DNA from: a virus
Length of the DNA: 60,124 nt
Direction: 5' to 3' (one strand)
IMG/VR virus record: IMGVR_UViG_3300033388_004729
Coordinates: 1-60,124 of that record
In this document: positions 6,568 to 48,078 of the stretch, one piece after another
How the letters are laid out: every line of letters begins with the position of its first letter
Numbering within the stretch: position 1 is the stretch's first letter
Notes under the pieces: model-generated
What the model was told of the DNA's origin: nothing
What the model saw: only the letters and a program-made list of their open reading frames with translations
Database searches by the model: none
Position numbers and translations under genes: made by a program

Positions 6568-9012
6568 TTATTTGCTTCCTCGGTTTGCTTCATAGAGAAT
6601 ATTATCCAACCTGTCCAACAGCATAGAACCACGCGAGACGGTCTGGTTTTGCCCGATACATCGCTCTGATGAGATTAATTTATAGTTCGTAGATGTACAA
6701 ACAAAAAGCACCTCATCATATTGCTTTAGTAATCTCTGGTTTTTATCAATGAGTTGATCAACTGTGTGAATCCCGGGTCTTTCATATTCGATCGCTAACT
6801 TATGCCCGTTGATTTCTGCGACCACGTCAGCATCCTCATAGTGGTTTACTTGGACTGACGCCCCTCTATGGAGCAAGTATGCGGCGATTTGTAGGACAGT
6901 TCCGTAGTGGTCGACGGTCTGGTTCAATATTTTGCCATCTTTAACCTCAGACGTCTGTATCCAGATTCCAGTTGTGCCGCCCCGGAGTGCTCGCACAACA
7001 GCGAATCTATCCCGCCCGGGTGCTAGTAGTTTTGAATCACCGTCAATCCAATCTTCGATATATGCGTGATTCTCTTCAGCGAGTTTTGTATATCTTTTAT
7101 CGATGACCTTGAAACCAACATCAGCACCTGCTTTTATACCTGGTTTTGTAGTACCCAATATGACCTCCGATTCCAGGTCAGTAAGTGAGAATTTCACATC
7201 TGTTACGGTGTTGTTCACCTGGACTAATCCCTGCCCAATTCCACACCCACGAAGCGCAGCAATATCTTCATCTGACATATTAAAGAATGCTTTAATTGAA
7301 TCATATGAGTTCGGTTGAACATTCCCCATGATGATATTTACAAATGAGTTATTTTTAAGCAGTTCTTTAACGTCTTCGTCTTTCGCGTCAGATGGCTGTT
7401 GTGTTGTGAACCATGCATTGAGTCCGTAGCTTCGGCCCTGGGTATATATCTTCAGGATGAACTCTGCCAGTTTCTTGTCGTTTAAGAATACCCGGCCTTC
7501 GTCTATGATCACATTGGTTTTTTTGGTCAATTCAGTATTGAATCTCATCCCAACCATTCCGGTAACAAACACATTCATGGCGTCCTGGAGTGTCCCTGGT
7601 ACACTTGAAATATCAATGATTATAATATCTTTGTCAAAGTTTACATCCGTGGGTCGATTGATATATTCCCAAGATGTTTCTAATCTACTGGTTCGATTGA
7701 GCATTGCTTCAGCAGATGGATTTTTATTTTTCGAATCTTCTTTCCATACTTCTCGCAGGTCCAGCAAGACTGGCCACCTATCTCCTGCCAAATCTTTCCA
7801 GGTGTCGGGATCCTTTCGGATAATACCTTTCCTACGATATATCTCTATTAGGGATTCGTTGACATAGTTATCCATGTTGTCAGATGTGTTCAGGACCCGG
7901 AAGAAAGCTGTTACTAACTCCAAATGATTATTAAATATCTCAATATAATCATCATCTGTTTGATATACGGCATTGGTATCTAAGATTACCTGCAACGGAT
8001 TGATGTTATTATATCCTTTCTTACTTCCAATGTTAATGACCATTGCTTTATCTTTGTAATAATCTGCTACTGCAATATAGTTGGTTCTATTGTCAGGCTT
8101 TGGAGTAATATATACAAACCTATGACCTAATAGATCATAGCACCCCATCATCAATTTCATTAAAAGTACGGTCTTTCCTGATCCAGTTGATCCTACTATC
8201 AGATGATGTCCTGCGGCTAGCTTATCCAAATTGATTATGAATGGTGCATTATCCGCCTTACGCTCGCCATAGATTAAACCTATATCTGACAGCGCAACCA
8301 ACGGGTCTCGCAGAGGTACCAATGTTCCGCAGTCATGGCTCAACTGCTGAATCTCTGCTATATCAGTTGAAATAGGATATGGCTGCGCGGCCATGAAAGT
8401 ATCTAATATTGTGTAGTAAGGAACTTCAGCTCGGACTATATTAGAAGACATTACACCCTTTATTCTCGATATGCCATTCTGCAATCCTTCAAATGAATCT
8501 GACCACAATGTGATTATGTATTGACTGTCGAATAATCTTTGCTCGTTATTATAGAGCACATCGTATAATTTTACAAAGTCATGCGCCTCTTTGTCAAATC
8601 TCAATGAGTGTGCAGAGGCTCCGGATGACTTCTTGGTATCTCGGTCAATCTGCTCACTTGATATCTTATTTTTATACAGTGCATCATCAATTAGTTGCTG
8701 TGCAATTTCGTGAGGGATTGGTTCGCAACTATACGAAATACCTATTAGGCAATCACTGGTGGCCTCTAGTGCCATAATCTGATCAGTGAAGTCCGGTGAT
8801 AGATTACGGGGGAATCCCCTGCCTGTCTGTGACGGCGGCACACCCACAATCATACAGGTTGCATATATCTCACGATCTATGAGTATGTGGTCTAGGTGTT
8901 CTTCGATTAGTGTAGGTGTGATTTTCCGTACTTGCTCATCATAGTATCGCTGACTGTCTAATACTGCGCCCGCTGCTTCGTTTTTGTTTCTGAATTGTGA
9001 TAGTATGTTCAT
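6568..9012 (-). CDS. VirB4/HerA-family secretion ATPase with nuclease-like C-terminal domain
   Basis: 814 residues; the start overlaps the upstream stop (ATGA). The central RecA-like domain has Walker A GSTGSGKT (about residue 276) followed by the VirB4-style RFVYITPKPDN. Walker B is NVIIDEGRVF, and the sensor region TTQQPSD is typical of VirB4/TraC conjugation ATPases. After about residue 640 a separate domain contains ADVVAEINGHKLAIEYERPG, resembling the D-x(n)-E-x-E/K core of PD-(D/E)XK nucleases. It would power DNA or protein transfer at the membrane with the neighbouring VirB6-like and VirB3-like proteins. ATPase identity is firm; the nuclease-like domain is inference. Confidence 0.9.
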   Translation of the reverse strand: MNILSQFRNKNEAAGAVLDSQRYYDEQVRKITPTLIEEHLDHILIDREIYATCMIVGVPPSQTGRGFPRNLSPDFTDQIMALEATSDCLIGISYSCEPIPHEIAQQLIDDALYKNKISSEQIDRDTKKSSGASAHSLRFDKEAHDFVKLYDVLYNNEQRLFDSQYIITLWSDSFEGLQNGISRIKGVMSSNIVRAEVPYYTILDTFMAAQPYPISTDIAEIQQLSHDCGTLVPLRDPLVALSDIGLIYGERKADNAPFIINLDKLAAGHHLIVGSTGSGKTVLLMKLMMGCYDLLGHRFVYITPKPDNRTNYIAVADYYKDKAMVINIGSKKGYNNINPLQVILDTNAVYQTDDDYIEIFNNHLELVTAFFRVLNTSDNMDNYVNESLIEIYRRKGIIRKDPDTWKDLAGDRWPVLLDLREVWKEDSKNKNPSAEAMLNRTSRLETSWEYINRPTDVNFDKDIIIIDISSVPGTLQDAMNVFVTGMVGMRFNTELTKKTNVIIDEGRVFLNDKKLAEFILKIYTQGRSYGLNAWFTTQQPSDAKDEDVKELLKNNSFVNIIMGNVQPNSYDSIKAFFNMSDEDIAALRGCGIGQGLVQVNNTVTDVKFSLTDLESEVILGTTKPGIKAGADVGFKVIDKRYTKLAEENHAYIEDWIDGDSKLLAPGRDRFAVVRALRGGTTGIWIQTSEVKDGKILNQTVDHYGTVLQIAAYLLHRGASVQVNHYEDADVVAEINGHKLAIEYERPGIHTVDQLIDKNQRLLKQYDEVLFVCTSTNYKLISSERCIGQNQTVSRGSMLLDRLDNILYEANRGSK

Positions 9013-9212
9013 TTAAAATCACCACCATCATTAAAATATTTAATAAGAGAGTTCATATCTTCTAGCATCCCTTCAGCCACACCATACCACATTTCTTTTA
9101 TATGATCTGGTAACAATTCAAACCCATCTCCATAATATCTTTTGAAATGTGCTTTGGCTATTCTATCTATTGAATACTTCGTAATTGAAATTTGTTCTAT
9201 CATTTGATACAC
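9009..9212 (-). CDS. Small hypothetical protein in secretion operon (67 aa)
   Basis: ATG 9212 lies inside the 3' end of the upstream gene; TGA overlaps the ATPase start. Sequence is helical (SIDRIAKAHFKRYYGDGFELLP) with an acidic end. No domain recognised. Tight overlaps on both sides tie it to the transfer module. Confidence 0.65.
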   Translation of the reverse strand: MYQMIEQISITKYSIDRIAKAHFKRYYGDGFELLPDHIKEMWYGVAEGMLEDMNSLIKYFNDGGDFK

Positions 9213-10012
9213 CTCCTCAATGCTCGCCCAATAACAGATTCTGTAATTAGCATCTCGTATCCTATCCCGCCAAGTTCAAATCCATCTTCTAAACTCGGGA
9301 TAAGATTCTCACGTTCTGCATCCGCTTCTTCAATCGTATTGAATCGACCTATGATTATTGAAGCGTAGATATACCGTTTCGTGGGAACCTCAGTATTAGA
9401 TACCAGCATTTGATACATTGAATTCAAGTGTTCGCGCTGTTCTGTGGTCTTTGATTCATCGTTCATAGCTTCAGCGACTTTGTTTTTGATTGTAGTATCC
9501 TGTGTGTATCGTTGAAACTCCACTACTTTGAGCACTTGACCATCATGTATTCTATCAATTATATTCTTAGTTACTAAGTGTATAAACGCATCCAGGTTAT
9601 CACCTGTTCGGTTGGGTACGAACAACATGTATATTACTCCGAACCGATTATTGGTGAATTCTATTAGCCCATTGGGGTGTGCTTTCTCAAGTGGGACAAG
9701 TCCCTTCAAGAATTGCAACGATACTGTATGCTTAGGGATGATATGCTCACCCTTCAATACTCTAATCCGATACTTTACTTCAAGTGTGGATCTTATGAGT
9801 ATGGCGGGTGTGCGCATTTTAGTATAGAATATTACCGCTGCGACTATACAGATTAGAATCATCAATGCTTTTAAGATTATTGATGAGAGTAATATGAATA
9901 GCATGAATGGGATAAACATAGCTACTAATCCGTAGATGCCAGCGGGAATTATCCAATTCCAAGGTACACCGTTCTGCTCTTCAGTTACTTTTCTTAATCT
10001 TAATGAAAACAT
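9200..10012 (-). CDS. Two-span membrane protein, VirB3/PrgI-like with cytosolic domain
   Basis: 270 residues. Two adjacent membrane spans at about residues 22-60 follow a short charged N-terminus. A cytosolic region (residues 65-270) contains RFGVIYMLFVPNRTGDNLDAF. PrgI/VirB3-type proteins have this short-tail, two-span form and precede VirB4; here the cytosolic part is long and may be the piece usually at the VirB4 N-terminus. Position directly upstream of the ATPase supports a role as inner-membrane partner. Assignment by topology and context. Confidence 0.65.
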   Translation of the reverse strand: MFSLRLRKVTEEQNGVPWNWIIPAGIYGLVAMFIPFMLFILLSSIILKALMILICIVAAVIFYTKMRTPAILIRSTLEVKYRIRVLKGEHIIPKHTVSLQFLKGLVPLEKAHPNGLIEFTNNRFGVIYMLFVPNRTGDNLDAFIHLVTKNIIDRIHDGQVLKVVEFQRYTQDTTIKNKVAEAMNDESKTTEQREHLNSMYQMLVSNTEVPTKRYIYASIIIGRFNTIEEADAERENLIPSLEDGFELGGIGYEMLITESVIGRALRRCIK

Positions 10013-10013
10013 A

Positions 10014-10874
10014 TTACATCACCAATTTTATTTTATTCTTTGCACTGCCTAATAATTTCATGATTGTAAATGGCCCCATGATAAATATTAAAGATACCAC
10101 TAATAATAATAATCCGAATACCATGAAACAGAAAAACTGCCATGACTGATTGTAGGGTGCGATGAATTGAATAACTCCAACGCCTACACATGTAACCGCT
10201 AGAATTACCGGCTGCATGAACACCATTACTATATAATAGATAAATAATCCGGTGCCTATCTTTCGAGTGTATGGGAGGGCAATTAAGATAATTATTACAA
10301 GACAGTATCCCATACTAATTCCTATGATCAATGACCTCCAGACAAACGACATGGATAATAATGCATAGATAAACCCCATGGCGACGTATAGTGTAACATT
10401 ATCCGGTGTGATTATTATGCTCGGTAATATCCCCGTCATTATCATAGAACAAATCACGTAGTTTAGCACTAATGCTAGCCACATTATAAACGGGATCATC
10501 GGCGCACATACTATTAATAGAAAAGCAGGACCAAAAAACTCTTTCATGGTTGATGTGTGTTTTACATCCATCCCCAAAAACTGTCTGCTTGTGCGCAGGC
10601 GGGACATCTGCACCCATGCGCCCCCAACAAATAGGAACATAATAAGAAATATAACATAGATTAATGCGCTTTCTTTTAGTGAGTTAAGGACTGTGGGGTC
10701 TTGCAGGGGGTTGTATGTGAACGTGGCAATGTCTACTAATAACTTCCCCTGATATGATGCATTGGCCACGCCCTGTGAGCTCATGTTGAATAAGTCATCA
10801 CCAACGCCTACAGCAAACAGTCCTATGCCTTTGTCCACACCCTCTGCTAGGGCGTCTACTGGATTTAATGCCAT
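10014..10874 (-). CDS. VirB6/TrbL/CedA-like polytopic membrane protein
   Basis: 286 residues with about six to seven hydrophobic segments between residues 65 and 280, preceded by a soluble N-terminal stretch with amphipathic GVDKGIGLFAVGVGDDLF. Conserved Trp/Pro in loops (FIMWLAL, GPFTIMKLL). Such proteins form the inner-membrane channel of type IV secretion and archaeal Ced DNA-import systems. It lies between the exported protein and the VirB3/VirB4 pair, as expected in a transfer operon. Confidence 0.7.
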   Translation of the reverse strand: MALNPVDALAEGVDKGIGLFAVGVGDDLFNMSSQGVANASYQGKLLVDIATFTYNPLQDPTVLNSLKESALIYVIFLIMFLFVGGAWVQMSRLRTSRQFLGMDVKHTSTMKEFFGPAFLLIVCAPMIPFIMWLALVLNYVICSMIMTGILPSIIITPDNVTLYVAMGFIYALLSMSFVWRSLIIGISMGYCLVIIILIALPYTRKIGTGLFIYYIVMVFMQPVILAVTCVGVGVIQFIAPYNQSWQFFCFMVFGLLLLVVSLIFIMGPFTIMKLLGSAKNKIKLVM

Positions 10875-11831
10875 TTAGAACCTCCTAATCTGTACAATAG
10901 ATGCAAACACAAATAATCCTACCAAGCTTATGAACGGCCAGAACAGTGATGAGAATACGTCGCCTGGGTCGTTACATTCCAGTTCATACACGGTGATGTT
11001 ATCCACTGCATAAGACTCATACGGACTATTCAACGTAACTGTAAGGTTACTACTCGAAAAGTTCATTGTTGGTATAATTACAAACTCACCGAAGCGGGAT
11101 AGATTACCGTCCATCTCCCATATGTTCGATGAATTTATCAACATATATGGACAGTTCTTATCAGTGTATTCTTGTGTCGCTGTGCTCCGATGATGTATTA
11201 TCGACTCATTATTATATGTGTAGTTAATTGAGATTGCATCAAGAGGGACATTCTCAATCAATATGCTGGTCTTTGGTGAGATTGAATTATTATAAATTAC
11301 CACTTCAATAGACACATTAGTATTATCTAACGACTGTAATGTCTGGGGTACAATATCAGTATCGTAGAAAATGGCTTCCTCAGTATAATATGTCTTCTTA
11401 AGATGTTTGAATGGATACAGTTTCAATGTTACCTTATACCATTTTAGGTATATATCCATTGAAGCTGTGATTGTATTGCCATCTGAGGTCACTGTTATCT
11501 CATCTGTGAATTCCTTAACACCGGTATTCCAACCATCGGCAGATTCCCATTTATCCGATTGGACTATAACATAATCCAACGGGTCGTCCGGAATGTAATA
11601 CTCACCATCTATGCAAATCATATCATTATATCCTACAATATCAATCCAGGCGTGTATATGCTCGTAATTCTGCTGTAGTTTATCTGGCGCATACACCCCT
11701 GAATAATCTAGACCATGTGCAAAATCTAAATATTTTTTTTCAAGAATTTCACTAATTGTATCTCCAGATGCAGCAGGAACTAAAAATAGAATGATGCAGA
11801 TAAACGCCACTCTAACTGAAATAGATTGCAA
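10875..11831 (-). CDS. Exported, C-terminally anchored protein of the transfer module
   Basis: About 311-318 residues. The open frame begins at TTG 11831, but GTG at 11810, just after the TAG of the upstream gene, is an equally good start. The N-terminus is a signal peptide (FICIILFLVPAASG), then a large extracellular region rich in beta strands with many N-glycosylation-type N-x-S/T sites. A final span SLVGLFVFASIV with RRF anchors it. It could be a pilus-associated surface protein contacting recipient cells; no family recognised. Confidence 0.65.
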   Translation of the reverse strand: MQSISVRVAFICIILFLVPAASGDTISEILEKKYLDFAHGLDYSGVYAPDKLQQNYEHIHAWIDIVGYNDMICIDGEYYIPDDPLDYVIVQSDKWESADGWNTGVKEFTDEITVTSDGNTITASMDIYLKWYKVTLKLYPFKHLKKTYYTEEAIFYDTDIVPQTLQSLDNTNVSIEVVIYNNSISPKTSILIENVPLDAISINYTYNNESIIHHRSTATQEYTDKNCPYMLINSSNIWEMDGNLSRFGEFVIIPTMNFSSSNLTVTLNSPYESYAVDNITVYELECNDPGDVFSSLFWPFISLVGLFVFASIVQIRRF

Positions 11832-15869: not shown

Positions 15870-16114
15870 ATACGATGATACGAGTGCCCGACAAAGACAT
15901 TTTAGAAGCAGAAGAAATGTTAATCACAAATCTCAGTATAGCATATTGTCAAGACCCCGGTGGTTTCGAGAATGATATACAGTGTGAAGATAAATATAAT
16001 AGTGGAATTCTGCGAGATATAATTCACAAAACCTTAAAAAAATGGGGACAATCAGAAGAATATATCCGGCGAAGGAGTAGGTATCACGACGTTGATGAAT
16101 ATTATAAGGAGTGA
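15866..16114 (+). CDS. Hypothetical protein, GTG start (82 aa)
   Basis: A GTG at 15866 overlaps the preceding TGA and stands 5 bases after AAGGA, so it is preferred over ATG 15875. Charged helical protein (DKDILEAEEMLITNLSIAYC, EEYIRRRSRYHDVDEYYKE). Its end contains the AAGGAG site for the ATP-grasp gene. Confidence 0.6.
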   Translation: MNTMIRVPDKDILEAEEMLITNLSIAYCQDPGGFENDIQCEDKYNSGILRDIIHKTLKKWGQSEEYIRRRSRYHDVDEYYKE

Positions 16115-16119
16115 ACAAC

Positions 16120-17406
16120 ATGAATATATTAATTACAAGTGCATCACAAAAAGTCATTTTGATAGAATCATTCAAAAAAGCAATTCGTGAATTAAAAATT
16201 GAATGTGGTGTGATTGCTGCTGATATATCTCGAAATTCATCCGCTTTGTATTTTGCTGATGATTATGTCATTGTACCAAGGAGTGATGATGATGAATTCA
16301 TAAATTTTATATTGTTATTATGCAAAGAAAAAAAGATTAAACTAATCATCCCCACACGAGACGAAGAGCTATTAACATTTTCAATAAACAAAAAACGGTT
16401 TAATAACATTGGCACAGAAATAATGGTATGTAATCCCGATACAATACGAACCTGTCAAAACAAAAAAATGTTTGTACAGTTTTGTATTGATAATAATATT
16501 CCAGTTCCAGAAACATATAATATTGCTGATGTTGTTAATTTTCCATTGTTTAGCAAACCAGTTACCGGAAGCGGTGGTAAAAACATTTTAAAAATTAATA
16601 ACATTCATGAATTAGAGGCAATAACAAAACAGCATTTAGATATAATAATTCAAGAGTATATTGAGTGGGATGAGTACACGGTAGATTTGTATGCAGATTT
16701 TAATAATAATATTAAATCTGTTGTCCCGCGCCGGCGTGTTGTTGTTAATGGTGGTGAATCAGTCATAACTACAACACACAATGACCTGAAAATTATTAAT
16801 GCAAGTATCGATCTTGCTAAAAAATTAAACCTTATTGGTCATAATACAATTCAATGTTTTTACAATGGTGATGATATAAAATTTATAGAGGTAAACCCTC
16901 GTTTTGGTGGAGCAGCACATTGCTCATTTGAAGCAGGAGCATTTACACCAAAATATATAATACAATTAATTATGGGACTGCCAATATCAGATAACATCGT
17001 GAAATTTAGAGACAATCTTACGATGTTAAGATATTCTAATGATTATTTCTTAAATCGGGAACCTAAAAATATAGATGAAGGAGAAGAAGTTGTTTGTATA
17101 GATTTTGATGGTGTAATACATAGATATTCAAAAGGATGGTATGACGGCAGTATATATGATATTCCGAACACTGGAACAGAACAAGCTTTAAGAAATATAA
17201 TATCAAATGGATATAAAATAATAATCTGCACTGCCAGAACCAATTTGTTAGGCGTTCGGAACTGGATGAATAAACATTTTCCTGGTATCTCTGTTGAAAT
17301 AACAAATATTAAACCAGCCGCTAAAATATATATTGATGACAAGGGATTCAAATTTCTGTCGTGGAGTAAAACTGATATAAAGTCGACAGCGCATGAGGTA
17401 GATTGA
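16120..17406 (+). CDS. ATP-grasp ligase fused to a HAD-like phosphatase domain
   Basis: 428 residues from ATG 16120 (AAGGAG site; GTG 16111 is less likely). Residues 1-100 form a Rossmann-like preATP domain opening MNILITSASQKV. Residues about 105-310 are an ATP-grasp fold: KPVTGSGGKNI (ATP loop), IIQEYI and FIEVNPRFGGA (metal-binding E/N). Residues about 325-428 carry HAD motifs CIDFDGVIH (DxD-like), IICTARTN and KIYIDDKG. The family, related to carbamoyl-phosphate synthase-like ligases, joins a carboxylate to an amine or thiol. HAD fusions are seen in surface-polysaccharide loci. Very AT-rich, unlike some neighbours, so possibly acquired cargo. Confidence 0.85.
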   Translation: MNILITSASQKVILIESFKKAIRELKIECGVIAADISRNSSALYFADDYVIVPRSDDDEFINFILLLCKEKKIKLIIPTRDEELLTFSINKKRFNNIGTEIMVCNPDTIRTCQNKKMFVQFCIDNNIPVPETYNIADVVNFPLFSKPVTGSGGKNILKINNIHELEAITKQHLDIIIQEYIEWDEYTVDLYADFNNNIKSVVPRRRVVVNGGESVITTTHNDLKIINASIDLAKKLNLIGHNTIQCFYNGDDIKFIEVNPRFGGAAHCSFEAGAFTPKYIIQLIMGLPISDNIVKFRDNLTMLRYSNDYFLNREPKNIDEGEEVVCIDFDGVIHRYSKGWYDGSIYDIPNTGTEQALRNIISNGYKIIICTARTNLLGVRNWMNKHFPGISVEITNIKPAAKIYIDDKGFKFLSWSKTDIKSTAHEVD

Positions 17407-17723: not shown

Positions 17724-17978
17724 TATCAAACACAGGCATCACAGACACATCAACCACTGAAACCCAGTGGTGTGGCTCTGGGTGCCTCGCCTGCCATCGT
17801 CCTTCTATGTATCGTTTGCCAATTACTGTGCGCATACAGTTATAATCGCCTCCGGTTTGTTAATTCTGTTTGAAATATTTATTATAGATGTATACACTTC
17901 AAATCTAAGGGTAACTGACTCCTTCTTGAAATCGAAAACCTGCTTAAGCACTTGATTTAGATAATCCGAATATGCATT
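17724..17978. other. Convergent gene gap with hairpin
   Basis: No supported gene. A hairpin CCACTG/CAGTGG lies at about 17754-17770, shortly after the last rightward stop and could end transcription. The rest is moderately AT-rich without repeats. A 62-codon rightward frame starting from a GTG lacks a ribosome site and is not accepted. Confidence 0.45.
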
Positions 17979-18401
17979 TTACCCTGCTTTTTGAAGTGGA
18001 TACTTATAGATCTTGATATCGAGTGCACATGCAGTTATAACTGCTTCCAACTCTTTAATATCAGCTTTATCCGGATAGACTACTGTGGACCCATCCAAAT
18101 GTTTCATTGCATCTTCTTCATATGAAACTTCATAGTGTGCAGTGACTGCTCCGTCATCGAACAGCCGGACATGGACCTGCATAATCGTACCATTGAAGAT
18201 TTTAAGTTTTCTTAGATTAGATATCTGTCCTTGTTCATCGTATGAAAAATAGTTATATTGATATCCAGCTTCGATAAGTGCACGCTCAAATTGGTCTGCG
18301 GTGATCTTCGTCCGGAACATGAAGAATCGTGAAACTGGTACTTGTATCCATGGGACGAATGATTTTAGTTTGCGCCAGAGATAGTGAAATTTTAGATTCA
18401 T
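17979..18401 (-). CDS. Hypothetical protein at end of virion operon (140 aa)
   Basis: ATG 18401 overlaps the TGA of the XhlA-like gene and is chosen over an upstream GTG. Basic N-terminus (MNLKFHYLWRKLKSFVPW) then an alpha/beta domain (ITADQFERALIEAGY, TIMQVHVRLFDDGAVTAHYE). Last gene of the leftward structural operon. Unknown; might associate with membrane through its N-terminus. Confidence 0.65.
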   Translation of the reverse strand: MNLKFHYLWRKLKSFVPWIQVPVSRFFMFRTKITADQFERALIEAGYQYNYFSYDEQGQISNLRKLKIFNGTIMQVHVRLFDDGAVTAHYEVSYEEDAMKHLDGSTVVYPDKADIKELEAVITACALDIKIYKYPLQKAG

Positions 18402-18598
18402 ATTTTTAACCACGTCCACACTTTATTTGCGAAGAGTGCAAGCAATGTCACAACAGGTAAAAACAAATTCTCAATTCTGCGGATGCGAGTATCCAGTTTT
18501 TTGAATTGTTCCTTTCCGTTTTCGAGATCGTTTATAATGTGGGCAACATTCGTATGTGTCTCAATGATTTTATCTCGGGTCTCCTGGTCAAGATCCAT
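18398..18598 (-). CDS. XhlA-like small membrane protein (possible lysis accessory)
   Basis: 66 residues: helical N-terminus (DQETRDKIIETHTNVAHII), coiled coil (KLDTRIRRIENLF) and a C-terminal membrane span ending WTWLKI. That order matches haemolysin XhlA proteins coded near phage holins. In an archaeal host a lysis role would be by analogy only. Confidence 0.65.
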   Translation of the reverse strand: MDLDQETRDKIIETHTNVAHIINDLENGKEQFKKLDTRIRRIENLFLPVVTLLALFANKVWTWLKI

Positions 18599-33819: not shown

Positions 33820-35852
33820 ATTTCCACCAGCGACAGATTATTTAGTATAAACGCCTTTGTCATACTATGGGATGAACTTAAAACTTTCATATTTTTATCA
33901 ATTGCAACACCGGGTTCTGTAATCGTTAATCTGATTACATCGCCTGCAATTATATCATTACCGTGAATAGTTATTTCAGCCGTTTTTTTATGAGTTTTTA
34001 CAATCATCTGATTTGCTTTTAGTTCTGCTAATTCGGATGATTCTATTTTCTCATCTCTAAAAACTTCAACATACATTCCATATTGGTCTTGTGATGCTAT
34101 ATCATTGTTCATGACTGCGACCCGGGCGGGAGACCTGGTATTAAAATCTAAATCGTCACTGCCATCCACACCCACTTTAACACCGTCTGCGGTGGTACCC
34201 TCTAATACCATCCAATATGTATCCCCGGGGGTCACGGTGACTGGATTTGTAAATTTTAATTCTGTTTTACCCTCGTCAGTGATATTATCAAGTAATACAA
34301 TTGCTGCGGATTCTGGCAAAATCACACCCGATGGTGAGCCCGTTGAATCTTCTTGAATCGATATTGTAATGTTTGATGAACTACCCGAAACAAATTCAGT
34401 ATGCACGAAAACACTAGATAAATATTCTTCAGTCGGTACAAATGATTCATTTTTCGGTGTTGAATCTGTGATGGTTGTTGTGGTCGTCTCAGTAGCACCA
34501 GTTTGATCAATACTCTGCTCATATCCCCCTATTACTATTGCCCGATTAACTATTTTCAAAGTGTCAGATATAGTGGGTGACCCATCTAGGTCATCATCGG
34601 TGATTGTATCGGTGATTACATATGCCGCCGGATCATAGAAATGTAATCTCTTGTCTGTGTCAATGTGCCACTCATACCCAACCTCATTTGCGAGATCATT
34701 TATTGCAGATGATACGGATACCCAGTTGAATGTCGCTGAATCAATTGTAAATGCTGTAGTTTCAACATTATCATAATTTGAACTTACATCCATCAATTCT
34801 CTATATTTCTGACCCGTTGTGTAATCTGTTTTTTCTAATATCCCTGTTGCAATTGCAGAGACTTCAGTATCATAGAATCGCGCAGGGAAAAACATATGAT
34901 TTAATTTATAGCCCCAGTCTTCGCCAGACACTTCCATTATGGGTAATACCTGCGAACCCTCGAGTGTTTTGTTTACATTCGTAATAATACCAACAAGTTT
35001 AACAGTGTCTACACCACCAACCCCCATATAAATTGCAATTTCACAACCCTGCTCAATATACGAATATGCATCTGATTCATTCGTAAGAACAAATGAGAAT
35101 CTATCGGCGGCCTGCGAACCAGATAAATCAAGATTGAGCCGTTGAATATTATCAGTTATTGCATATCCTTCATCATCGAGATCAGTTATCAGTACCCGGG
35201 ACGTTGGGATGTGCTCATGTGTGCCACCCGGATGATTATAAAGAAATGTTCGTTCACCTTCATTTAGACCGCGGGTATAAAGCCGCATTTCGTCCATTGT
35301 ACCGTCGAAATATTCAGTGCCCCCGTGTGATCCCAACAGCAACGGATGTGAATTAGCAGGACCTAACCCAAGTGCATGAGTTGAATCTAATTCATTATTA
35401 ATATATATTTTAGTTTCATTTCCAATTACTGTGATAAGTATGTGTGTCCATTTGCCCACATCTATTACATCCGTGGAAGTTACCCCAGTAGTTCCATTAT
35501 AAAATCCTATCTTCTCATCATTATATACATAGAAATTATAATTTACATTTGCCGAACCTGTGCCCTGGCGCTTTGCTAATATTCCGCCGATGTGCGAAGA
35601 ATCTAATTTGATCCATCCGCTGAATGTAATATCGGTTGTTATGTTGAGACTACTATTTATGCCACATGTGACATATTCAGAATTGCTACTATCGAAAATC
35701 AGTGCACCACCGGATATTCCATTTGTAGTCCATGTTGGGGGTCCTGTAAGATCCCCAGTATTCCCTTTACCAGATAGGTCGGCAGATGTAGACCCTGCGC
35801 CCTCATTAAACGACCAATATCCTACCAGCCCATTATCAAGATTAATGCTCAT
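33816..35852 (-). CDS. LamG-domain tail hub/baseplate protein
   Basis: 678 residues from ATG 35852, which overlaps the radical SAM stop (ATGA); the frame extends to a GTG at 35867. Residues about 1-210 are a concanavalin/LamG domain (LVGYWSFNEGAGSTSADLSG, FSGWIKLDS, YFDGTMDEMRLYTR). Residues about 215-430 resemble tail-hub proteins of the gpD/gp27 type (VEISGEDW-like MEVSGEDWGYKLNH, YEWHIDTDKRLHFYDP). The C-terminal part has another beta-sandwich and a final hub segment. LamG at a tail tip may bind host sugars. Confidence 0.75.
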   Translation of the reverse strand: MSINLDNGLVGYWSFNEGAGSTSADLSGKGNTGDLTGPPTWTTNGISGGALIFDSSNSEYVTCGINSSLNITTDITFSGWIKLDSSHIGGILAKRQGTGSANVNYNFYVYNDEKIGFYNGTTGVTSTDVIDVGKWTHILITVIGNETKIYINNELDSTHALGLGPANSHPLLLGSHGGTEYFDGTMDEMRLYTRGLNEGERTFLYNHPGGTHEHIPTSRVLITDLDDEGYAITDNIQRLNLDLSGSQAADRFSFVLTNESDAYSYIEQGCEIAIYMGVGGVDTVKLVGIITNVNKTLEGSQVLPIMEVSGEDWGYKLNHMFFPARFYDTEVSAIATGILEKTDYTTGQKYRELMDVSSNYDNVETTAFTIDSATFNWVSVSSAINDLANEVGYEWHIDTDKRLHFYDPAAYVITDTITDDDLDGSPTISDTLKIVNRAIVIGGYEQSIDQTGATETTTTTITDSTPKNESFVPTEEYLSSVFVHTEFVSGSSSNITISIQEDSTGSPSGVILPESAAIVLLDNITDEGKTELKFTNPVTVTPGDTYWMVLEGTTADGVKVGVDGSDDLDFNTRSPARVAVMNNDIASQDQYGMYVEVFRDEKIESSELAELKANQMIVKTHKKTAEITIHGNDIIAGDVIRLTITEPGVAIDKNMKVLSSSHSMTKAFILNNLSLVEI

Positions 35853-36874
35853 AAGTCCTTCAACCACCCTATTTTAGCATTAATATGATCCATCAGTGGC
35901 TTTGTAATCCCACAGGACGACGCTTTCTTAATCTCAGTATTGCCTATAGCAATTGAATCAGCCGCACAACCACCTGCGCAGAAGTCAACATAATCACATT
36001 CCTGGCATTCATCATCAAGATTATATACAAATGATAGGAACTTCGCCCGGGCATCACCATACCATATTTCATCAAATGTGTTTTTGTTTACGTTTCCTAA
36101 CACATAATCATCATTAGCATTATTCAAAACAAAACATTCACAGGGATATACATCACCGAATGTATCGATACAAACTACATGTTCATTACACGTAGGATAA
36201 CATTTGAGATGTGTTTTCCCTAATAATATAAACTGGATCATAATATTGAACGGATCTATCCTAATATACGATTTATTATCATACCACTCATCAAATAGTT
36301 TTATTGCAGCGATCGCAGATTTCTCTTGAAAATTATTAGGAGTCTGGAAGTTTAGCTTAATCCCTTGATTCATGTGATGAAAAAAAGGATAGAATTCGTC
36401 GATATGATCACAGGCATATTCAGACAATACAGCAATACACCCGAAGGGTATCTTGCGTCGATTCATCTCAATCATTGATTTTATGATTGTATCGAATGCA
36501 CCCGAACCCATGTTTTTATCATTAATAAATATGTCACCATCTAATGACGTAGAGACACCATAATCATATTTCTGTATAAAATCATACCATTCTGGCGTTG
36601 CTAATGTCATATTTGAGCAAATTACCCGGTCAATGTTACATCCAATTTCAGTAAATCGCCGCTCTGCATCCTCATAAAACTCTAACGGCATCATCATAGG
36701 CTCTGCAGCATGCCATTCGATGTGACCATTCTCACAATTCAACTCGTGTGCCTTTGCACAGAAATCAATTGTATTATATAGTGTAGTTCGATTCATCCTA
36801 TTATGCCCTTTTCGAGCATTGCAGTATGTACAAGACAGATTACATTCATCAGTCGGAAGGATTGAGGTTATCAT
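35849..36874 (-). CDS. Radical SAM/SPASM protein-modifying enzyme
   Basis: 341 residues. The radical SAM cluster motif CNLSCTYC is at about residues 11-18, with partial-barrel features GHIEWHAAEPMM and YGVSTSLDGDIF. A SPASM-type second region carries CYPTC, PCECF, CQECDYVDFCAGGC and a late Cys, enough ligands for two more Fe-S clusters. Family members (anaerobic sulfatase-maturating type, RiPP maturases) modify protein side chains. The gene overlaps the tape measure stop and the LamG hub start by ATGA on both sides, so it is translated as part of the tail module. The likely substrate is a virion or neighbouring peptide, which is inference. Confidence 0.88.
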   Translation of the reverse strand: MITSILPTDECNLSCTYCNARKGHNRMNRTTLYNTIDFCAKAHELNCENGHIEWHAAEPMMMPLEFYEDAERRFTEIGCNIDRVICSNMTLATPEWYDFIQKYDYGVSTSLDGDIFINDKNMGSGAFDTIIKSMIEMNRRKIPFGCIAVLSEYACDHIDEFYPFFHHMNQGIKLNFQTPNNFQEKSAIAAIKLFDEWYDNKSYIRIDPFNIMIQFILLGKTHLKCYPTCNEHVVCIDTFGDVYPCECFVLNNANDDYVLGNVNKNTFDEIWYGDARAKFLSFVYNLDDECQECDYVDFCAGGCAADSIAIGNTEIKKASSCGITKPLMDHINAKIGWLKDL

Positions 36875-43894: not shown

Positions 43895-44332
43895 TTAATC
43901 CTTTACATCTCTAAAATCGGTAATCCACTTTGTACCATCCCATATTTGGCCAACATTCATCAACTCTACCAACTCATCGACGGTATAATTCCATTTTGTT
44001 GCAAATTGTCCTAAACCCCGATAATACCAGTCACTGTCTATGGACACCTCAACGAGAATATATCCAGATTTTGAAATTGACAGTTTATATTCAAGACCAT
44101 TGAGAGGGGACACATATATTTTTGAATCTCCAAATGTAAGCTCACCATCCAGCTTCTCTGTACGTTTTATGTCTCGCACTTTGTAAAAATGATATGCAAT
44201 TATCAAGCTTGCCATTTCACCCTCGGTGGGACATTCTAGTTTTTTTGCATCAACTGGCTCTCCCGATTCTGCTCCCATCTTTTGAGCTACGTATTCGCTC
44301 ATTTCTTTGTATGATATTTTTTTGTTATCCAT
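43895..44332 (-). CDS. Hypothetical protein (145 aa)
   Basis: ATG 44332 behind GGTGGTAG. Helical N-terminus (ISYKEMSEYVAQKMGAES) and beta core (LTFGDSKIYVSPLNGLEYKL, GYILVEVSIDSDWYYRG). The gene lies downstream of tail-completion genes. No family recognised. Confidence 0.6.
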   Translation of the reverse strand: MDNKKISYKEMSEYVAQKMGAESGEPVDAKKLECPTEGEMASLIIAYHFYKVRDIKRTEKLDGELTFGDSKIYVSPLNGLEYKLSISKSGYILVEVSIDSDWYYRGLGQFATKWNYTVDELVELMNVGQIWDGTKWITDFRDVKD

Positions 44333-44384
44333 TTCTACCACCTAATTTAATATAAACGCAAAACTAATAGCTGTTGCGATTAAT

Positions 44385-44421
44385 ATCGCAGACCAACATC
44401 CACTAAAACAAGGATTGAAAC
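44385..44421 (+). CRISPR. Solitary CRISPR repeat unit, Methanosarcina-type
   Basis: A 37-base segment ends ATCCACTAAAACAAGGATTG followed by AAAC, the 3' half that I recall as characteristic of Methanosarcina CRISPR repeats, including the ATTGAAAC crRNA handle. Its 5' half (TCGCAGACCAACATC) is similar in outline but less matching. Only one copy is found, so this is not an array; no cas gene is present. A spacer-length stretch (44422-44456) follows and overlaps the 3' end of the RHH gene at 44438. It is antisense to the surrounding genes. Identity of the repeat is from memory and needs a database check. Confidence 0.72.
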
Positions 44422-44437
44422 TTCATAATACCCATAT

Positions 44438-44551
44438 TCATGTCTCCCTTTCCAACTTCTCTTCAATCGCTTCCTTAATAAATTTTTGTTTGTCGTTACC
44501 AGTTGAAATGACCTTCGCTATTACTTCATCAGGGACATAGATTGTTGCCAT
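44438..44551 (-). CDS. Small RHH-type regulator (37 aa)
   Basis: MATIYVPDEVIAKVISTGND then KFIKEAIEEKLERE: a short beta strand and two helices of an RHH repressor or antitoxin. Starts with no ribosome site just below an operator-like palindrome and TATA box (44558-44584). Probably autoregulated. Its stop overlaps a short frame that ends within the CRISPR repeat. Confidence 0.65.
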   Translation of the reverse strand: MATIYVPDEVIAKVISTGNDKQKFIKEAIEEKLERET

Positions 44552-46779: not shown

Positions 46780-48078
46780 TTATCCACAATTCATGGTTTT
46801 TATATATTCAATTGCTTCTGTTCTTGATGTTATTATCCTATCAAGTTGAAGATTTTCTACTTTGGTTATGATTTTAGATATTATTGGACCGGGCGGAATC
46901 CCCAATGCCATAACATCGTGCCCTGTTATCAATCGCTCGTTTGTTCCTTTTATTTCGGCGTGTGTGCAAGAGTTTATATATTCTAATATTTTAGTTGGCA
47001 ATGTAGTTTTTACCATACTGTCCGCTTTCAACAATTCTAATAATTCATAGAACAACGGCTCCTGAATCAAACGTATCTTTTTTGCATTTCTTAATTCATC
47101 AAATCTATGGATTATCATGTGGTTTGCTACCAACCACGAAACATTACTTACAACACTTTTCTGGAATTTCAGTCTTTTTAATATTTCATTGGCCATTTTG
47201 CACCCCACTACTTCATGTCCACTAAAATGATAATTGTCCCATGTGGGTGGCTTGCCAACATCATGAAGCAAGGTTGCTAATCTAAGCTCCAATGACGCTT
47301 CTTTAGGCAATGATGATAAAGCAATCAATGTGTGTTCATATATGTCCTTTTCTGGATGATATTTGTGCGAACCCGCTTTAAGATTCTTCATTGCTTCTAT
47401 TTCAGGAATTATTTTATATAACAATCCTGTTTTATCAAGAAGTTCAAAACCACGAATATTATACTCGGACATTAATATTTTTACAAACTCGTTGCGTATC
47501 CTTTCATTAGATATTCTAGCAAGGTTTTGTGTTTGTATTTCATCCAATACACGTTTTTTTATCTTGAAATCAAGAACAGTTGCAAGGCGTACTGCCCTAA
47601 CGATTCTTAATTTATCCTCATCAAATCGCAACTTTGGATCCCCTACGGTATCGATCCAACCATATTTAATATCCTCTTCACCACCAAACATATCAATTAA
47701 TATCATTTTAGAATTCATTGCCATTGCATTAATTTTAAAGTCGCGTCTTGACAAATCTTCTTTTATATTATCTGAAAATACTACATCACAATGCCTGCCA
47801 TCACAATTTATATCCCTTCTATATGTCGTTATTTCAAAACACTTATTTTCAATCACAACTGTAACAGTTCCATGCGATACCCCTGTAGGAATGACTTTAT
47901 CAAACAATTTCATAACCATTCCAGGTCGTGCGTTTGTTGCAAAATCAAAATCGGTTGGTGGTTTATTTAGCAATAAATCCCGAACTGCTCCACCAACCAA
48001 AAAACATTCAAATCCTGCATGTTCAAGTGTTGTAAATATATGCTTTATATTCCTATCTACAAGACACATACAAATCAT
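46780..48078 (-). CDS. Class II (bacterial-type) CCA-adding enzyme / poly(A) polymerase family with HD domain
   Basis: 432 residues. N-terminal nucleotidyltransferase: FLVGGAVRDLLLNKPPTDFD (motif with catalytic Asp pair DFD), THGTVTVV-like HGTVTVVIEN, RRDFKINAMA and RFDEDKLRIVRAVR. C-terminal HD: LATLLHDVGKPPTW. This is the bacterial/eukaryotic class II enzyme that adds CCA to tRNA 3' ends. Archaea normally use the unrelated class I enzyme. Lateral origin is therefore likely. No tRNA gene was seen in the window. It could repair tRNAs in infected cells or have another RNA-tailing job. Confidence 0.9.
   Translation of the reverse strand: MICMCLVDRNIKHIFTTLEHAGFECFLVGGAVRDLLLNKPPTDFDFATNARPGMVMKLFDKVIPTGVSHGTVTVVIENKCFEITTYRRDINCDGRHCDVVFSDNIKEDLSRRDFKINAMAMNSKMILIDMFGGEEDIKYGWIDTVGDPKLRFDEDKLRIVRAVRLATVLDFKIKKRVLDEIQTQNLARISNERIRNEFVKILMSEYNIRGFELLDKTGLLYKIIPEIEAMKNLKAGSHKYHPEKDIYEHTLIALSSLPKEASLELRLATLLHDVGKPPTWDNYHFSGHEVVGCKMANEILKRLKFQKSVVSNVSWLVANHMIIHRFDELRNAKKIRLIQEPLFYELLELLKADSMVKTTLPTKILEYINSCTHAEIKGTNERLITGHDVMALGIPPGPIISKIITKVENLQLDRIITSRTEAIEYIKTMNCG

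What the first reader, a model, noticed from the sequence alone, without database searches (positions are those of the whole stretch)
44385..44456. Solitary Methanosarcina-type CRISPR repeat in a viral genome
A single 37-base unit ends in ATCCACTAAAACAAGGATTG plus AAAC, which I recognise as the 3' half of Methanosarcina CRISPR repeats with the crRNA handle ATTGAAAC. No second copy or cas gene is present. Viral solitary repeats can act as RNA anti-CRISPRs that occupy Cas proteins, or as mini-arrays for excluding rival viruses. The following 35 bases would be the spacer and overlap the RHH gene at 44438. It also ties the element to a Methanosarcinales host.
Basis: partly seen in the sequence, partly recalled or inferred. 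Interest (0 to 1): 0.88.

Follow-up and report, generated by a model that had tools for sequence, protein, structure and literature searches.

The report
Viral copy of host CRISPR repeat
A virus of methane-cycling archaea carries one lone copy of its probable host's CRISPR repeat, identical over all 37 bases, most likely made as a small decoy RNA that jams the host's antiviral CRISPR machinery; this is a known viral trick, seen here in an archaeal group where it seems never to have been tested.

Summary
Window 44385-44421 (+) is a full-length CRISPR repeat: Rfam CRISPR-DR7, positions 1-37 of 37. It is the only copy in the record. All 37 bases match the leader-proximal repeat beside cas6b-cas1b-cas4b in one ANME-2-like Methanosarcinales genome. 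Only 5 of 186 genomes of that order match within 3 mismatches.

The host link has independent support. The viral MCM is closest to the MCMs of that clade, and the virus carries a 115-bp mobile element shared with those genomes.

The repeat is intergenic. A TATA-like box lies 38 bases upstream, and a 5' hairpin uses the repeat's first bases. No leader, second repeat, cas gene or spacer match was found.

Best reading: a solitary repeat unit acting as an RNA anti-CRISPR (Racr), as in Camara-Wilpert 2023. The match and solitariness are shown; transcription, Cas6b binding and inhibition are inferred.

'Methanosarcina-type' needs correcting. The 24-base 3' half also occurs in bacterial arrays, and the full unit is ANME-2-like. 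The host effector (I-B or III) is unresolved. New member of a known kind.

The parts
44385..44421 (+). Solitary CRISPR repeat unit (37 nt), DR7 class
   Evidence: Rfam RF01320, 45.5 bits; 37/37 identical to host repeat in G008 C169:4270-4306 and C99:1-37; single copy
44414..44421 (+). ATTGAAAC, the predicted 8-nt crRNA 5' handle after Cas6 cleavage
   Evidence: sequence; handle position inferred from known Cas6 processing of this repeat class, not tested here
44374..44391 (+). 5' hairpin (TTGCGAT-TAAT-ATCGCAG) made of virus-specific upstream sequence and repeat bases 1-7
   Evidence: fold z -2.66, 2 of 200 shuffles as stable; six-base arm match in 0.04% of shuffles (post hoc)
44347..44354 (+). 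TATA-like box TTAATATA (1 mismatch to TTTAWATA), placing a start near 44374-44378
   Evidence: only such site in 44300-44460; 3.4% chance for an 11-nt placement window; inference
44422..44456 (+). Sequence in the position of a spacer; no known target
   Evidence: first 22 nt have no exact match in viral contigs; 3' part overlaps the RHH-like ORF antisense
44462..44468 (+). TTCAATC, complementary to GATTGAA of the repeat handle region; predicted to pair with it
   Evidence: fold of 44372-44495, z -2.56; position; weak, post hoc
44483..44492 (+). T-rich stretch, possible archaeal terminator
   Evidence: sequence only; inference
44438..44551 (-). Small RHH-like ORF, 37 aa, convergent with the repeat unit
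   Evidence: RHH_1 E 0.015, below cut-off
43895..44341 (-). Neighbouring ORF, 148 aa, no family match; other border of the intergenic region

Best explanation
The element is a virus-borne solitary CRISPR repeat unit that works as an RNA anti-CRISPR (Racr). Shown: a complete 37-nt repeat, single and intergenic, identical to the repeat of a CRISPR locus with cas6b, cas1b and cas4b in an ANME-2-like Methanosarcinales archaeon of the clade the virus most likely infects. Inferred: a short RNA starts near 44374 from the TATA-like box, folds a 5' hairpin over the first repeat bases, and presents the repeat to host Cas6b. Cas6b binds it, and probably cuts it to leave ATTGAAAC on an RNA without a useful guide. 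That RNA occupies Cas6b and the backbone proteins, so fewer working surveillance complexes form. Because the same repeat may feed both an I-B and a type III effector in this host group, one decoy could blunt both (inference).
For: Rfam DR7 full-length hit above the gathering score. Exact 37/37 match to G008, at the leader-repeat junction of a contig with Cas6b (E 3e-79 to PADLOC Cas6b), Cas1b (1e-145) and Cas4b (2e-81). Only 5 of 186 genomes of the order are within 3 mismatches, so the 5' 13 bases are lineage-specific. Host clade supported by MCM and a shared MITE. The repeat matches this locus and not the host's I-D repeat GTTTGACGTCCACCCCTTGTGG. Intergenic, solitary, downstream of a promoter-like site with a stable 5' hairpin, as described for SRUs in PMC10651486. 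A scan of viral contigs for the same 3' end gave 23 stretches, most with one exact copy, so this is a recurrent viral pattern.
Against: No transcript, binding or inhibition data. The promoter, hairpin and terminator are post hoc predictions. No close relative of the virus carrying this region was found, so conservation of the unit could not be tested. No acr/aca gene was recognised next to it. The I-B effector genes were not found in the G008 genome with two Cas7 models. No Racr against I-B or III, or in an archaeon, appears as experimentally tested in the papers read.
Confidence: 0.62

Rival explanations
1. Fossil or hitch-hiking piece: a repeat picked up from a host array by recombination, with no function in the virus.
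For: Host chromosomes also carry lone repeats. In G011 one is fused into a truncated cas1, a deletion scar. Another lies upstream of a MutS-like gene in G011 and G009. Exact identity would also fit recent capture.
Against: No leader, second repeat or spacer remnant beside it. Boundaries fall at the repeat unit, it is intergenic, and virus-specific upstream bases form a hairpin with it. Lone repeats recur in many viral contigs.
Confidence: 0.18
2. Guide RNA: the single repeat gives a working crRNA with the following ~35 bases as guide, used by host Cas complexes against a rival virus or to tune the viral RHH-like gene.
For: The handle is intact. Type III crRNAs do not need a downstream repeat (established knowledge), and G008 has a type III effector. 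The would-be guide is antisense to the 3' end of the RHH-like ORF.
Against: No exact 22-nt match to the guide in viral contigs. Proven viral mini-arrays have spacers flanked by repeats (PMC6858448, abstract only). Against its own locus, handle complementarity would mark the target as self.
Confidence: 0.1
3. DNA-level role: the repeat is a landing or recombination site for entry into, or exchange with, the host CRISPR array, or a decoy for Cas1-Cas2.
For: 37 bp of identity with a multi-copy host array would serve homologous recombination; such roles have been suggested for SRUs (PMC10651486).
Against: No integrase was recognised among the proteins scanned, no leader is next to the repeat for Cas1-Cas2, and the upstream hairpin and TATA-like site point to RNA.
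Confidence: 0.06

Closest known systems
Solitary repeat units / RNA anti-CRISPRs (Racr), Camara-Wilpert et al. 2023, PMC10651486
   Same: Single full-length repeat in a viral intergenic region, promoter-like site upstream, no cas genes, repeat equal to a host CRISPR repeat.
   Different: Racrs shown by experiment in the text read act on I-F, I-E, I-C and V-A systems of bacteria. Here the host is an uncultured archaeon, the class is DR7 (Cas6b-type), and inhibition is untested. Virus-specific hairpin at the 5' edge.
Virus-borne mini-CRISPR arrays (SPV1/SPV2), PMC6858448
   Same: Archaeal virus carrying host-type repeats without cas genes.
   Different: Mini-arrays have at least two repeats and spacers against related viruses; here one repeat, no matched spacer.
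Rfam RF01320 CRISPR-DR7 / Methanosarcina I-B and III-C repeats
   Same: Same repeat class over all 37 positions.
   Different: Those are array repeats. The 5' 13 bases match ANME-2-like Methanosarcinales and differ by 6 of the first 14 bases from the common Methanosarcina repeat ATTCGCGAGCAAG.
CreR-type repeat-like regulatory RNAs
   Same: Repeat-like RNA away from an array.
   Different: No creT-like target, second pseudo-repeat or effector-dependent promoter target identified; considered from knowledge only.

Membership tests
Viral solitary repeat unit (SRU) | Full-length match to a known CRISPR repeat (>=90% identity and coverage) | tested here: met
   37/37 to G008 repeat; Rfam DR7 1-37
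Viral solitary repeat unit (SRU) | No second or partial repeat (>70% identity) within 100 bp | tested here: met
   best flank identity 21/37 = 57%; simple ungapped test, not the published program
Viral solitary repeat unit (SRU) | Lies in an intergenic region of a virus | tested here: met
   no ORF of 60 aa or more over it; between 43895-44341 and 44438-44551, both minus strand; G000 is a virus record
Viral solitary repeat unit (SRU) | Host has a CRISPR-Cas system of the matching subtype | tested here: inconclusive
   cas6b-cas1b-cas4b and the same repeat in G008; I-B effector not found in the MAG; host assignment indirect
RNA anti-CRISPR (Racr) | Transcribed as a small RNA from its own promoter | not testable with these tools
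   only a TATA-like site and hairpin predicted
RNA anti-CRISPR (Racr) | Binds Cas6/Cas7 and inhibits interference | not testable with these tools
   needs experiment
RNA anti-CRISPR (Racr) | Co-located acr/aca genes (frequent, not required) | tested here: inconclusive
   no named acr/aca; a small RHH-like ORF is adjacent, and RHH domains occur among predicted archaeal anti-defence genes (PMC11065993)
Mini-CRISPR array | At least two repeats with a spacer between | tested here: not met
   single copy

The most novel reading that the evidence does not exclude
An archaeal Racr that hits a shared crRNA-processing step (Cas6b), so that one decoy RNA disables both an I-B and a type III effector of an anaerobic methanotroph, with a virus-made 5' hairpin that stabilises or times the decoy and a convergent RHH-like gene whose antisense transcript switches it off.
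Probability: 0.12. Interest if true: 0.68.

Novelty: new member of a known kind. Interest (0 to 1): 0.47.

Why it matters
If true, it carries RNA anti-CRISPRs into viruses of uncultured methane-cycling archaea and to a Cas6b-type repeat class not seen tested in the papers read. It also shows that a viral lone repeat, read over its lineage-specific 5' part, can name the host clade of an unassigned archaeal virus, here backed by two independent genetic links.

Tried and rejected
Relatives of the virus around the repeat: three proteins gave no relative in viral contigs; terminase gave 42 loci, the closest (L180, 75% identity) sharing little beyond terminase and having no DR7 match. Host spacers against the virus: about 1,670 spacers from fetched arrays gave nothing convincing (best 22/24), and whole-window comparisons with 186 genomes gave no hit in a CRISPR-like array among the 11 short-hit loci checked. 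Exact 22-mer of the would-be spacer in viral contigs: none. A strict genome contigs pattern missed the host array by one base, recovered with a looser one. Enclosing stem as in L006/L012: not present in the window (that script placed the repeat start one base late, corrected for the window). I-B Cas7 in G008 by PF01905 and PF05107: not found. Genus Methanosarcina as host rejected on the 5' half.

Full report
What is there. The window is an IMG/VR virus record of 60,124 bases. It encodes a terminase large subunit, an HK97-like major head protein, tail and neck proteins, a tape-measure protein and an archaeal MCM helicase, so it is a tailed archaeal virus. At 44385-44421 (+) lies ATCGCAGACCAACATCCACTAAAACAAGGATTGAAAC. 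Rfam places it in CRISPR-DR7, full length, above the curated score. No second copy exists anywhere in the record. The unit sits in the 96-base gap between two minus-strand ORFs: a 148-aa ORF (43895-44341) and a 37-aa RHH-like ORF (44438-44551).

Not chance and not coding. The 24-base 3' part gave no match in 100 shuffles. No ORF of 60 aa or more covers the repeat. The flanking 100 bases reach at most 21 of 37 identities, so it is solitary by the published criterion of less than 70%.

Whose repeat it is. The 3' 24 bases are shared by arrays in Methanosarcina, Methanolobus, Methanoperedens, GoM-Arc1, Deltaproteobacteria, Cloacimonadota and others, so the 3' half alone does not identify a host. 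The 5' 13 bases do. Among 186 genomes of the order of isolate CSMAG_508, five have a match within 3 mismatches. One of them (G008) matches all 37 bases, twice. One copy ends a contig that reads cas6b, an AbiE pair, cas1b, cas4b, an upstream (leader) stretch, then the repeat; the other begins a second contig. They look like the two ends of one unassembled array. The CSMAG_508 array (11 repeats) differs by one base. G009, a further relative (3 mismatches), is the MAG named ANME-2 cluster archaeon S7142MS1.

Independent host links. The viral MCM scores best against G001, G012, G009, G010, G016 and their neighbours (44-45% identity, 555-566 bits) in the same order; G008 itself gave no MCM match, probably because the genome is incomplete. 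A 115-bp element with inverted ends (GTATCCACTTCAAA...TTTGAAGTGGATAC) at about 17889-18004 is 82-95% identical to copies in G017, G185, G183, G016, G011, G009, G012, G008 and others. These agree with the repeat on an ANME-2-like host clade.

Which CRISPR system. G008 has three modules: the cas6b-cas1b-cas4b locus with the matching repeat; an I-D locus with a different repeat; and a type III-D-like effector with no array on its contig. Two Cas7 models did not find a I-B effector in this incomplete genome. So the repeat belongs to a Cas6b-type processing and adaptation module, while the effector it serves (I-B, III, or both) is open. M. mazei has both I-B and III-C systems (PMC7465815).

How it probably works. 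A TATA-like TTAATATA at 44347-44354 would start an RNA near 44374-44378, about where a hairpin begins whose 3' arm is the first seven bases of the repeat. The hairpin uses virus-specific upstream bases and is rare in shuffles (0.04%, post hoc). The repeat ends in ATTGAAAC, the expected handle. I infer a decoy RNA that occupies Cas6b and the proteins that follow. RacrIF1 acts this way on Cas6f and Cas7f (PMC10651486). Downstream TTCAATC can pair with the handle region, which is suggestive only.

Rivals. A fossil repeat is the main one, because these host genomes do leave lone repeats behind: G011 has one fused into a broken cas1, and G011 and G009 share one upstream of a MutS-like gene. The precise unit, the absence of array remnants and the virus-made hairpin argue against it but do not exclude it. 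A single-repeat guide RNA and a DNA recombination site are possible but unsupported.

Known or new. SRUs and Racrs are described, with 2,103 viral SRUs predicted, archaeal hosts included (PMC10651486). This is a new member of that kind; whether this very record was in that list could not be checked. New here are the exact host repeat, the ANME-2-like clade and the 5' hairpin. Membership as an SRU rests on tested features; membership as a Racr needs experiment.

Noticed in passing
window 17889-18004: A 115-bp element with terminal inverted repeats GTATCCACTTCAAA...TTTGAAGTGGATAC (MITE-like), 82-95% identical to copies in many ANME-2-like genomes, often two per genome. It overlaps the 3' end of the minus-strand ORF 17979-18419.
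   Followed up: partly
L006 1705-1800, L016, L012 2690-2800 (-), weaker L011: In some other viral solitary repeats the 5' part of the repeat pairs with an arm 40-60 bases downstream (12 bp in L006/L016, 10 bp in L012; 0 of 300 shuffles), enclosing the handle and pseudo-spacer in one stem.
   Followed up: partly
L177 8630-8666 (G011 C164): A CRISPR repeat is fused into the middle of cas1, which breaks off after ...DAVKFAVEN: a deletion that removed the rest of the cas1-to-array segment and left one repeat; the AbiE pair next to it is intact.
   Followed up: partly
L178 1969-2005 (G011) and L179 2259-2295 (G009): A lone chromosomal repeat with conserved flanks lies between a polymer-forming-protein-like gene and a MutS-like helix-hairpin-helix gene in two genomes.
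   Followed up: partly
window 46780-48078 (-): The virus encodes a CCA-adding enzyme-like tRNA nucleotidyltransferase with an HD domain, though no tRNA gene was found.
   Followed up: no
window 16111-17406 (+): A PylC-like/ATP-grasp protein with a C-terminal part resembling an HAD or phosphoheptose-type domain.
   Followed up: no
window 35849-36874 (-): A radical SAM/SPASM protein directly follows the tape-measure gene in the tail module.
   Followed up: no
window 6679-11659: 66-71% DNA identity and synteny with G023 C63:2653-7479, probably a related virus or plasmid.
   Followed up: no
L176 719-2271 (G008 C169): An AbiE toxin-antitoxin pair sits between cas6b and cas1b in the CRISPR locus of the likely host.
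   Followed up: no
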